NCBI GenBank assembly: GCA_902762795.1
Contig: CACWPM010000043.1
Span: forward strand, 1 to 61,534
DNA: 61,534 nt
Source: Fibrobacter succinogenes
Lineage (GTDB): Bacteria; Fibrobacterota; Fibrobacteria; Fibrobacterales; Fibrobacteraceae
Direction: 5' to 3'
In this document: positions 1 through 1,497 of the stretch, piece after piece
How the letters are laid out: every line of letters begins with the position of its first letter
Position numbering within the stretch: the first letter of the stretch is position 1
Made by a program: the position numbers and the translations under genes
Notes under the pieces: model-generated
What the model was told of the DNA's origin: nothing
The model's input: only the letters and a program-made list of their open reading frames with translations
Database searches by the model: none

Positions 1-240
1 ATGACAGTGGCTGCGACGTTCGCCTTGAAGGGAGTCTCCTAACGGAGGATGACCGTGGCTGCGACGTTCGCCTTGAAGGGAGTCTCCTAGCGGAGGATGA
101 CCGTGGCTGCGACGTTCGCCTTGAAGGGAGTCTCCTAGCGGAGGATGACCGTGGCCGCGATGTTCGCCTTGAAGGGAGTCTCCTAGCGGAGGATGACCGT
201 GGTCGCGACGTTCGCCTTGAAGGGAGTCTCCTAGCGGAGG
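1..240. repeat. Five tandem copies of a 48-bp unit
   Basis: Five consecutive 48-bp units start at 1, 49, 97, 145 and 193. They differ only by single substitutions (for example TAA/TAG at unit position 40-42, GCTGCG/GCCGCG/GTCGCG near position 10). The array probably continues left of the window. Each unit carries the inverted repeat CTCC-TAGC-GGAG, so a transcript could form a series of short hairpins. Related, more degenerate copies lie at 25087-25220. Read as codons, each unit also holds a 13-codon open frame that starts at the ATG directly after GGAGG and ends at TAG or TAA; I consider this probably incidental. Confidence 0.93.
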
Positions 241-245
241 ATGAC

Positions 246-277: not shown

Positions 278-280
278 CAG

Positions 281-364
281 TGCGGATGAAAGGACTTGAA
301 CCTTCATGCCCTCGCGAGCACTAGAACCTGAATCTAGCGTGTCTACCAGTTCCACCACATCCGC
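281..364 (-). tRNA. tRNA-Leu (anticodon CAG)
   Basis: On the minus strand the 84-nt sequence folds as a class II tRNA. The acceptor pairs GCGGATG with CATCCGC and has discriminator A. The anticodon stem is CTAGA/TCTAG with loop TTCAGGT, giving CAG. There is a long variable arm, and the T loop is TTCAAGT. The 3' CCA is not encoded. Confidence 0.97.
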
Positions 365-404: not shown

Positions 405-478
405 GGGGAGGTTCATAAATAAGGCTATTTATAGAAAGCCATCTAAGAGAAATGCAAAATGAACATCATGCGGGAGGG

Positions 479-690
479 GCGAGAACTCGGAGTGGATGCT
501 TTCAGCATCAGCAATTACGGTTCAGCAATGTTTGTGCTAGCACAACCGCAGCATTCGCCTTTGATGCTTTTGACGCCTACTCCCCACAGAGGATAACTCA
601 AACTAAGCAACTAAGGTGGCAAGTTTCGTATAGGCGTCAGCGGCTTCACTCGGTTATGCCGGTCTGCAAGCAGCCTGCCGCAACACTCGC
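479..690 (-). ncRNA. Candidate structured RNA, family not recognised
   Basis: No convincing protein gene lies between 365 and 747, but the minus strand has a dense set of nested pairings. A closing stem GCGAG/CTCGC joins the two ends. Inside it are a GCGGC/GCCGC stem enclosing two small hairpins (one is CTGC-TT-GCAG), an 8-bp perfect stem GACGCCTA/TAGGCGTC, a CGGTT/AACCG pairing, and the hairpin GATGCT-GAA-AGCATC. A weak hairpin followed by T-rich sequence near 423-441 could end the transcript, just before the tRNA-Leu promoter. I checked by eye for hallmarks of tmRNA, RNase P RNA and SRP RNA and did not find them. The length suits a 6S-like RNA, but the fold looks branched rather than rod-like. 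Confidence 0.45.
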
Positions 691-747
691 TTTACACAAA
701 AAAACGATTACATTTTCACAATTTTAAAGTTGCTTTAATTTTGGCGC

Positions 748-1497
748 TTATTTTCGGATAGCTTCGTGAATCCAGTCCATGCGCTTGTTGTTCCAATACG
801 ACCAATCGTGTTCACCATCGGGGTCGAACCGGAGTTCGCAGTCCACCTGAACCGCCTTGCAAAATTCCGTTATCCACGGAACAGTCTTGTCCGACGGATA
901 AAGTCTATCCTTGCCGCCCTGCAAAAAACGCCACCGTCCCGTTTGCATTTTCTTCTGCGACGCAATCGCCTGCGGTTCTCCCAGAAAGCCCCCGAACGAA
1001 CTCATGAGCAAGCGGTCATCCACCGCCCGGCGGCCTTCCAGCGAATAGACGAGCACGCCCAGAGAGCCGTCCGAAATGCCTACCAACGAAACCTTTTCCA
1101 CAGGCGATTTCCGGAGGGCCGCCACGGAATCCAGCGCTGCATCCACAGCATCCATCATCCCCTTCGTGACCCAATGGTTCTCGCGACAAGCCGAAACGCT
1201 CACGACAATTTTATCAGGATAAAGACTTGAAAAATCAGAACCGGCGATAAGACCTTTTTCGCAATTGCTACTCCCCATGCCACCATGGAACCATACAACC
1301 ACGGACGACTTGGCCGAACGCATGTACTTCTGCAACTGCGATTTTTTCGAGTTCGCCATTTTCGGCCACCAAATTCCCGTCGGACTTTGGAAAGATGGCG
1401 TTCCCGACGCTCCAACCGGAACCGAAAGCGAATCCGGCGCAGCATACGCAAACACACACGTGAGCAGCAAGGCTACAACAAAACAAAGACGCATCAT
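748..1497 (-). CDS. Secreted alpha/beta-hydrolase-like protein
   Basis: This 249-residue protein has a signal peptide (about 1-19, ending AYA). The rest looks like an alpha/beta hydrolase: HGG at 71-73 (oxyanion-hole type), G140-I-S142-D-G144 as a nucleophile elbow, an acidic residue in GGKD (D187), and H230 in GEHDWSYW as the likely general base. The family covers esterases and peptidases, so the substrate cannot be named. The start codon overlaps the stop of the upstream gene by 4 nt (ATGA), which indicates translational coupling in a three-gene operon with the genes at 1494 and 2123. It is probably periplasmic or secreted. Confidence 0.75.
   Translation of the reverse strand: MMRLCFVVALLLTCVFAYAAPDSLSVPVGASGTPSFQSPTGIWWPKMANSKKSQLQKYMRSAKSSVVVWFHGGMGSSNCEKGLIAGSDFSSLYPDKIVVSVSACRENHWVTKGMMDAVDAALDSVAALRKSPVEKVSLVGISDGSLGVLVYSLEGRRAVDDRLLMSSFGGFLGEPQAIASQKKMQTGRWRFLQGGKDRLYPSDKTVPWITEFCKAVQVDCELRFDPDGEHDWSYWNNKRMDWIHEAIRK

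What the first reader, a model, noticed from the sequence alone, without database searches (positions are those of the whole stretch)
479..690. Branched structured RNA of unknown family next to tRNA-Leu
The minus strand has several long, nested, compensating stems in a 212-nt stretch with matched ends, no believable gene on either strand and a possible terminator. I could not match it to tmRNA, RNase P or SRP RNA. It could be an unusual 6S RNA, a regulatory RNA or a new family.
Basis: seen in the sequence. Interest (0 to 1): 0.6.

Follow-up and report, generated by a model that had tools for sequence, protein, structure and literature searches.

The report
Nested hairpin repeat in Fibrobacter genomes
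The structured stretch beside the tRNA gene is not a one-off RNA gene: it is one copy of an apparently undescribed family of small DNA repeats, scattered dozens of times through Fibrobacter genomes, that fold into hairpins and carry further copies inserted at their hairpin tips.

Summary
The stems are real, but the 212-nt unit and its 'matched ends' are not. The stretch folds no better than shuffles (z -1.05), matches no Rfam family, and its closing helix GCGAG/CTCGC is complete only in this copy. It belongs to a dispersed, modular palindromic repeat: about 75 hits in this genome, present in all 80 Fibrobacter genomes searched and five other genera of the family, in none outside it. Copies are built from a frame, a ~77-bp two-hairpin core unit, and further units (B, C, D) at or beside hairpin tips; D is an inverted core unit, C another core-type unit. 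Neighbouring species have the same site empty, with the frame alone, or with other units. Stems covary strongly, but G·U is hardly commoner than A·C (48 against 41), unlike tRNAs, so the palindromes look conserved as DNA rather than RNA. No IS200/RAYT transposase lies near copies and no integron integrase was found. Best reading: a new REP/ERIC/BOX-like interspersed repeat of Fibrobacteraceae, mobile or formerly mobile, growing by insertion at hairpin tips and by exchange between copies. How it moves is unknown; whether it is transcribed was not testable.

The parts
409..730 (-). whole segment present here and (in another form) in G014 and G019, absent from the same site in G001, G004, G006 and all more distant genomes examined; limits approximate to a few bases
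   Evidence: orthologous esterase/tRNA-Leu loci
466..493 (-). 3' arm of the frame (ACTCCGAGTTCTCGCCCCTCCCGCATGA); the 5' arm (AAGCGTCGGCC...CTTCGC) is missing in this copy
   Evidence: frame seen without core unit in L259
495..569 (-). unit C: core-type two-hairpin unit (AGCATCAAAGGCGAATGCTGCGG-hairpin-CATTGCTGAACCGTAATTGCT then GATGCTGAAAGCATC)
   Evidence: present or absent in orthologous copies; empty forms L094, L096
572..697 (-). core unit (about 77 bp without its insert): main hairpin, then hairpin GACGCC...GGCGTC, the latter split by unit B
   Evidence: R1 matches 568-703 and 457-589; alignment A1
578..632 (-). unit B (TATACGAAACTTGCCAC...GGGGAGTA), inserted in the tip of the GACGCC/GGCGTC hairpin
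653..684 (-). main hairpin of the core unit (GTTGCGGCAGGCTGCTTGCAGACCGGCATAAC); stem covaries family-wide, with a conserved GCG/CAT mismatch pair
280..364 (-). neighbour: tRNA-Leu(cag); its promoter TTGACA-16-CAAAAT at 404-377 is conserved downstream of the insert
748..1497 (-). neighbour: esterase-like ORF (249 aa) conserved in 34 of 41 genomes, used to find the orthologous site

Best explanation
The stretch is a composite copy of a Fibrobacteraceae-specific family of small interspersed palindromic DNA repeats. Shown: it is dispersed, modular and structured; its units recur alone, in tandem and nested; orthologous sites differ in presence and in unit content. Inferred: the units are non-autonomous mobile (or once mobile) DNA recognised as folded hairpins, which preferentially enter the tips of existing hairpins with a very short (2-3 bp, A-rich) duplication; copies are then remodelled by recombination between copies and lost by deletion. 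The window copy most likely began as the frame-plus-unit form still seen in G014 and G019; its interior was replaced by core+B+C from another copy, with the left junction in the shared GCGAG motif, which removed the left frame arm. It probably has no dedicated function of its own; if read through from the esterase gene it would form hairpins in that transcript.
For: Dispersal and modularity: 19 BLASTN matches in the own genome with pieces recurring separately; 75 matches to model R1 in the own genome including a tandem array; 80 of 80 Fibrobacter genomes, five other genera of the family, none outside it. Nesting: frame without core unit in L259, core without C in L235, core+C in L233, core+B+C plus an extra left unit in L256; C and D absent in L069, the orthologue of L066; D is the core unit on the opposite strand. 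Hairpin tips: flanks of B and of isolated core units are complementary beyond permutation (13 of 5000 and 8 of 5000 shuffles). Presence/absence: tRNA-Leu, tmk and cidA-like sites each lack it in some relatives. DNA rather than RNA: G·U 48 and A·C 41 over all stems in 62 non-redundant copies, leaving out one invariant G·U, against 60 G·U and no A·C marked in 774 tRNA pairs. Mostly intergenic: 56 of 70 copies, no fixed orientation to neighbours.
Against: No enzyme was found. No clear target-site duplication at the tRNA-Leu site. The esterase gene tree interleaves filled and empty genomes, so this site needs one gain and at least two losses, or exchange between lineages. Complementary flanks could also come from stem growth rather than insertion. 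A·C in tRNAs was counted from ARAGORN brackets, which may not mark mismatches. Most genomes are MAGs, in which repeats can cause misassembly.
Confidence: 0.75

Rival explanations
1. A real non-coding RNA family (trans-acting or regulatory) that has multiplied; the covarying three-way-junction core is its functional fold.
For: Strong covariation; single-stranded stretches are also conserved; CTTG and G-N-A tips resemble stable RNA loops; some copies share upstream motifs GCGAG...TCGTNGAGAAT.
Against: G·U about equals A·C; up to tens of copies per genome with free exchange of units; absent from the same site in some close relatives; no fixed orientation to genes; no Rfam match.
Confidence: 0.13
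2. A classical REP family moved by a RAYT (IS200-type tyrosine transposase).
For: Intergenic location, tandem arrays and hairpins resemble REPs and BIMEs; the second hairpin ends in CGTC, and CGTC-tagged REPs without a dedicated transposase are described (PMC3733652).
Against: Y1 transposases in only 27 of 80 genomes, none in several near-complete genomes with more than 30 copies; no repeat found in the 31 loci (about 1.5 kb on each side) around such genes; units are 77 bp and larger, with two hairpins and internal mismatches; CGTC is paired, not an unpaired tag.
Confidence: 0.08
3. Integron attC-like recombination sites.
For: Imperfect palindromes of similar size, recognised in integrons as folded DNA (general knowledge).
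Against: No integron integrase over the cut-off in 80 genomes; units do not bound gene cassettes.
Confidence: 0.01

Closest known systems
BOX elements of Streptococcus pneumoniae (boxA-boxB-boxC; PMC3049150)
   Same: Composite intergenic repeat with outer modules and optional inner modules, highly structured, many copies, no transposase of its own
   Different: No sequence relation noted (not tested directly); here inner units sit at hairpin tips, can be inverted, and are of the same kind as the core
REP/BIME and CGTC-tagged REPs (PMC3733652, PMC2817692)
   Same: Dispersed extragenic palindromes in single, tandem and mosaic arrangements; CGTC-ended hairpin; no dedicated transposase known for CGTC types
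   Different: Two-hairpin ~77-bp unit rather than 20-40 bp; no unpaired GTAG or CGTC tag; no RAYT association found
ERIC sequences of enterobacteria (from memory)
   Same: About 130-bp intergenic imperfect palindrome with internal insertion variants
   Different: Different lineage; here several unit types nest in one another
Double-hairpin and repetitive hairpin-forming elements of mitochondrial DNA (PMC2800124)
   Same: Small intergenic hairpin elements; apparent double hairpins there arise by tandem insertion
   Different: Organelle, not bacterial; there stems are conserved and loops vary, here stems vary with compensation
IS elements that target REPs (IS1397, IS621; PMC1525189)
   Same: Insertion into existing palindromes
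   Different: Those are autonomous IS elements; here the inserts are themselves non-coding hairpin units

Membership tests
Known structured RNA families (6S, SRP, RNase P, tmRNA, all of Rfam 15) | Covariance-model score above gathering threshold | tested here: not met
   No match in 365-780 at gathering threshold, none meaningful at E<=10
Functional RNA in general | Covariation with G·U tolerated more than A·C on the transcribed strand | tested here: not met
   Covariation yes, but G·U 48 against A·C 41; tRNA control 60 G·U of 774 pairs
Functional RNA in general | Discrete transcript | not testable with these tools
   No expression data
REP/BIME | Many dispersed extragenic palindromic copies | tested here: met
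   75 hits in own genome, mostly intergenic
REP/BIME | 20-40 bp hairpin with unpaired GTAG or CGTC end | tested here: not met
   77-bp two-hairpin unit; CGTC lies inside the stem
REP/BIME | Associated RAYT transposase (GTAG type) | tested here: not met
BOX (modular composite repeat) | Outer modules with variable inner modules | tested here: met
BOX (modular composite repeat) | Sequence homology to boxA/B/C | not tested
   No direct comparison; exact core found only in Fibrobacter among 84,980 species, model R1 only in Fibrobacteraceae within the phylum
MITE | Terminal inverted repeats and target-site duplication | tested here: inconclusive
   Some copies have GGCCAAGG...CCTTTGGC ends, many do not; an A-rich 2-3 bp duplication is suggested at nested insertions and in thrS of L055
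MITE | Autonomous partner with the same ends | not tested
   Only Y1 transposases and integron integrases were searched
Integron attC | Integron integrase in the genome | tested here: not met
   0 of 80 over cut-off

The most novel reading that the evidence does not exclude
Fibrobacteraceae carry an unknown recombination system that recognises folded single-stranded hairpins and inserts small non-coding hairpin units into the tips of other hairpins, whatever their sequence, so that elements grow by successive nesting. The extra hairpin families seen at the same sites could be further clients of that system.
Probability: 0.25. Interest if true: 0.72.

Novelty: new variant of a known kind. Interest (0 to 1): 0.5.

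Why it matters
It replaces a supposed unknown RNA gene with a family of nested hairpin repeats spanning a bacterial family of major rumen fibre degraders. It is a worked case in which covariation alone does not prove a functional RNA: the G·U against A·C comparison pointed the other way. If tip-directed insertion is real, the orthologous sites listed here make it directly testable, and the repeats offer strain markers and a likely cause of breaks in Fibrobacter assemblies.

Tried and rejected
Known RNA families: none. tRNA-adjacent attenuator or terminator: the sole terminator-like hit overlaps the tRNA promoter. Small protein (ORF 452-727 +): units come and go, so no frame is conserved (sequence reading). 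A cis-regulatory leader: downstream genes lie in both orientations. RAYT mobility: not supported. Integron attC: not supported. Carriage by phages or plasmids: no match in IMG/VR (exact 21-mer), phage or plasmid records. A gene tree to date the tRNA-Leu insertion was ambiguous. No description of these repeats was found in the papers held; the S85 genome paper's main text does not mention them and its supplement on insertion sequences could not be read here.

Full report
What was checked. The window is contig C43 of a 3.93-Mb genome in 89 contigs. All 41 matches to the repeat core in a collection of 84,980 species are Fibrobacter genomes, mostly named F. succinogenes or uncultured Fibrobacter. 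On the minus strand the order is esterase-like gene (748-1497), the structured stretch, a tRNA promoter (404-377) and tRNA-Leu(cag) (280-364). Rfam gives nothing in the stretch. The 212-nt fold is no more stable than dinucleotide shuffles on either strand.

It is a dispersed modular repeat. BLASTN of 400-740 found 19 matches in the same genome and matches in 20 of 25 genomes of the genus, none in the more distant ones searched. Different parts of the query recur separately. Two other copies in this genome carry the full arrangement at 90-92% identity; others lack the middle. Reading 61 copies side by side and aligning 28 simple ones gave the anatomy: a frame (AAGCGTCGGCC...CTTCGC / ACTCCGAG...GCCCGC); inside it a core unit of about 77 bp made of a long interrupted hairpin followed by a short hairpin GACGCC-GTA-GGCGTC; and optional further units. 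Unit B sits in the tip of the short hairpin. Unit C follows the core and has the same architecture with other stems. Unit D, in the tip of the long hairpin, is a core unit in the opposite orientation. Core units also occur alone and in a tandem array. The window holds core + B + C and the 3' frame arm; the 5' frame arm is missing.

Distribution. A covariance model (R1) matches 80 of 80 Fibrobacter genomes and 75 places in the own genome (threshold E<=0.01, so some weak hits are included, and composite copies can give more than one hit). In a phylum-wide search of 168 genomes it matches five further genera of the same family (g11, g12, g13, g16, g17) and nothing outside the family. It was not found in viral contigs (exact 21-mer), phage or plasmid records.

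Structure. In the 28-copy alignment the long hairpin has 8 of 11 pairs with changes on both sides, 99.3% of all cells are paired, and no shuffle reaches this. In 62 non-redundant, more diverged copies the core stems occur as GC, CG, AU and UA. So the palindromes are truly maintained. The kind of change is informative: leaving out one invariant G·U, there are 48 G·U and 41 A·C (19 and 20 in the core stems by my tally of the same table). In 35 distinct tRNAs, mostly from this genome, ARAGORN marks 60 G·U among 774 pairs and no A·C (ARAGORN may not mark mismatches, so the firm comparison is the 7.8% G·U share). An alignment fitted to an RNA model leans, if anything, towards G·U. I infer that Watson-Crick pairing is kept at the DNA level, by structure-dependent mobility, by palindrome correction, or both. 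This is inference, not proof.

Presence and absence at the same site. At the tRNA-Leu site the own genome, G014 and G019 carry an insert; G001, G004, G006 and all more distant genomes examined have the esterase stop codon near the tRNA promoter with no copy of the element between. G014 and G019 have the frame with one core-type unit and no core, B or C. At the cidA-like site G014 is empty, G004 has the frame without any core unit, the own genome has an extra left unit plus core, B and C, and G001 has an unrelated palindromic repeat. At tmk the own genome has core + C, G001 core only, and G014, G004 and G006 none. L066 and L069 are orthologous by their shared flanks and differ by C and D. The gene tree for the tRNA-Leu neighbour interleaves filled and empty genomes, so that site implies a gain plus at least two losses, or exchange between lineages.

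Where units insert. The flanks of B (13 distinct contexts) and of isolated core units (35) are more complementary to each other than permuted flanks (13 and 8 of 5000 permutations); for instance B lies between CCCCGC/GCGGGG, AAGTGCTT/AAGCACTT-type and GGTACT/AGTACC arms. Nested junctions and an insertion in thrS (L055) suggest a 2-3 bp A-rich duplication, but A-rich flanks make this weak. Some of the 35 contexts are related (the D copies), so that second value is optimistic.

Mechanism. Shown: dispersal, modularity, palindrome maintenance, presence/absence, complementary flanks. Inferred: mobility as folded DNA into hairpin tips, exchange between copies, and loss by deletion. The window copy is best explained as an older frame whose interior was replaced from another copy, with the left junction in GCGAG, which is shared by the upstream flank in G014/G019 and by the core unit. 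The enzyme is unknown: Y1 transposases are absent from most genomes and no copy was found near them, and integron integrases are absent. DDE and serine-type transposases were not tested.

Known kinds. By behaviour it resembles BOX elements (composite with optional inner modules; PMC3049150), REP/BIME including CGTC types that lack a known transposase (PMC3733652) and, from memory, ERIC. It fails the size, tag and RAYT tests of REPs. Insertion into palindromes is known for IS1397 and IS621 (PMC1525189). Hairpin elements of mitochondria are a looser parallel (PMC2800124). I found no description of these repeats in the papers held. I therefore file it as a new variant of small bacterial interspersed palindromic repeats, with tip-directed nesting as the distinctive and least proven feature.

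Noticed in passing
window 1-245: Tandem array of a 48-bp unit, 5.1 copies, 96% matching, at the contig end; it contains the palindrome-like stretch GGAGTCTCCTAGCGGAGG and probably ended the assembly.
   Followed up: no
L055 (G009:C27) 581-657, minus strand: A core unit appears to interrupt thrS out of frame with a stop codon; either a pseudogene, a second thrS copy, or an assembly fault.
   Followed up: partly
L059 564-643 and L081 3584-3663: In two related genes that look like PD-(D/E)XK (Rpn-type) nucleases (named from memory of the sequence), a core unit interrupts the reading frame at the same place.
   Followed up: partly
L258 (G001) and L234 (G014), upstream of the cidA-like gene and tmk: Unrelated palindromic repeats (GTTACTAGTTACTAG type; TGTCATGCCCG...CGGGCATCTCC type) occupy sites where other genomes carry this element, so several repeat families share the same intergenic sites.
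   Followed up: no
L014, L015: Unit B sits inside a TCATCCCCGC...GCGGGGAT palindrome at two loci with different flanks in two genomes, which links two repeat families.
   Followed up: partly
L005, L007, L037, L051, L062, L086, L097 upstream of the frame: Many frames share a distant upstream motif GCGAG, then roughly 45 nt of poorly conserved AT-rich DNA, then TCGTNGAGAAT directly before AAAGCGTCGGCC; could be a promoter or the true left end of the element.
   Followed up: partly
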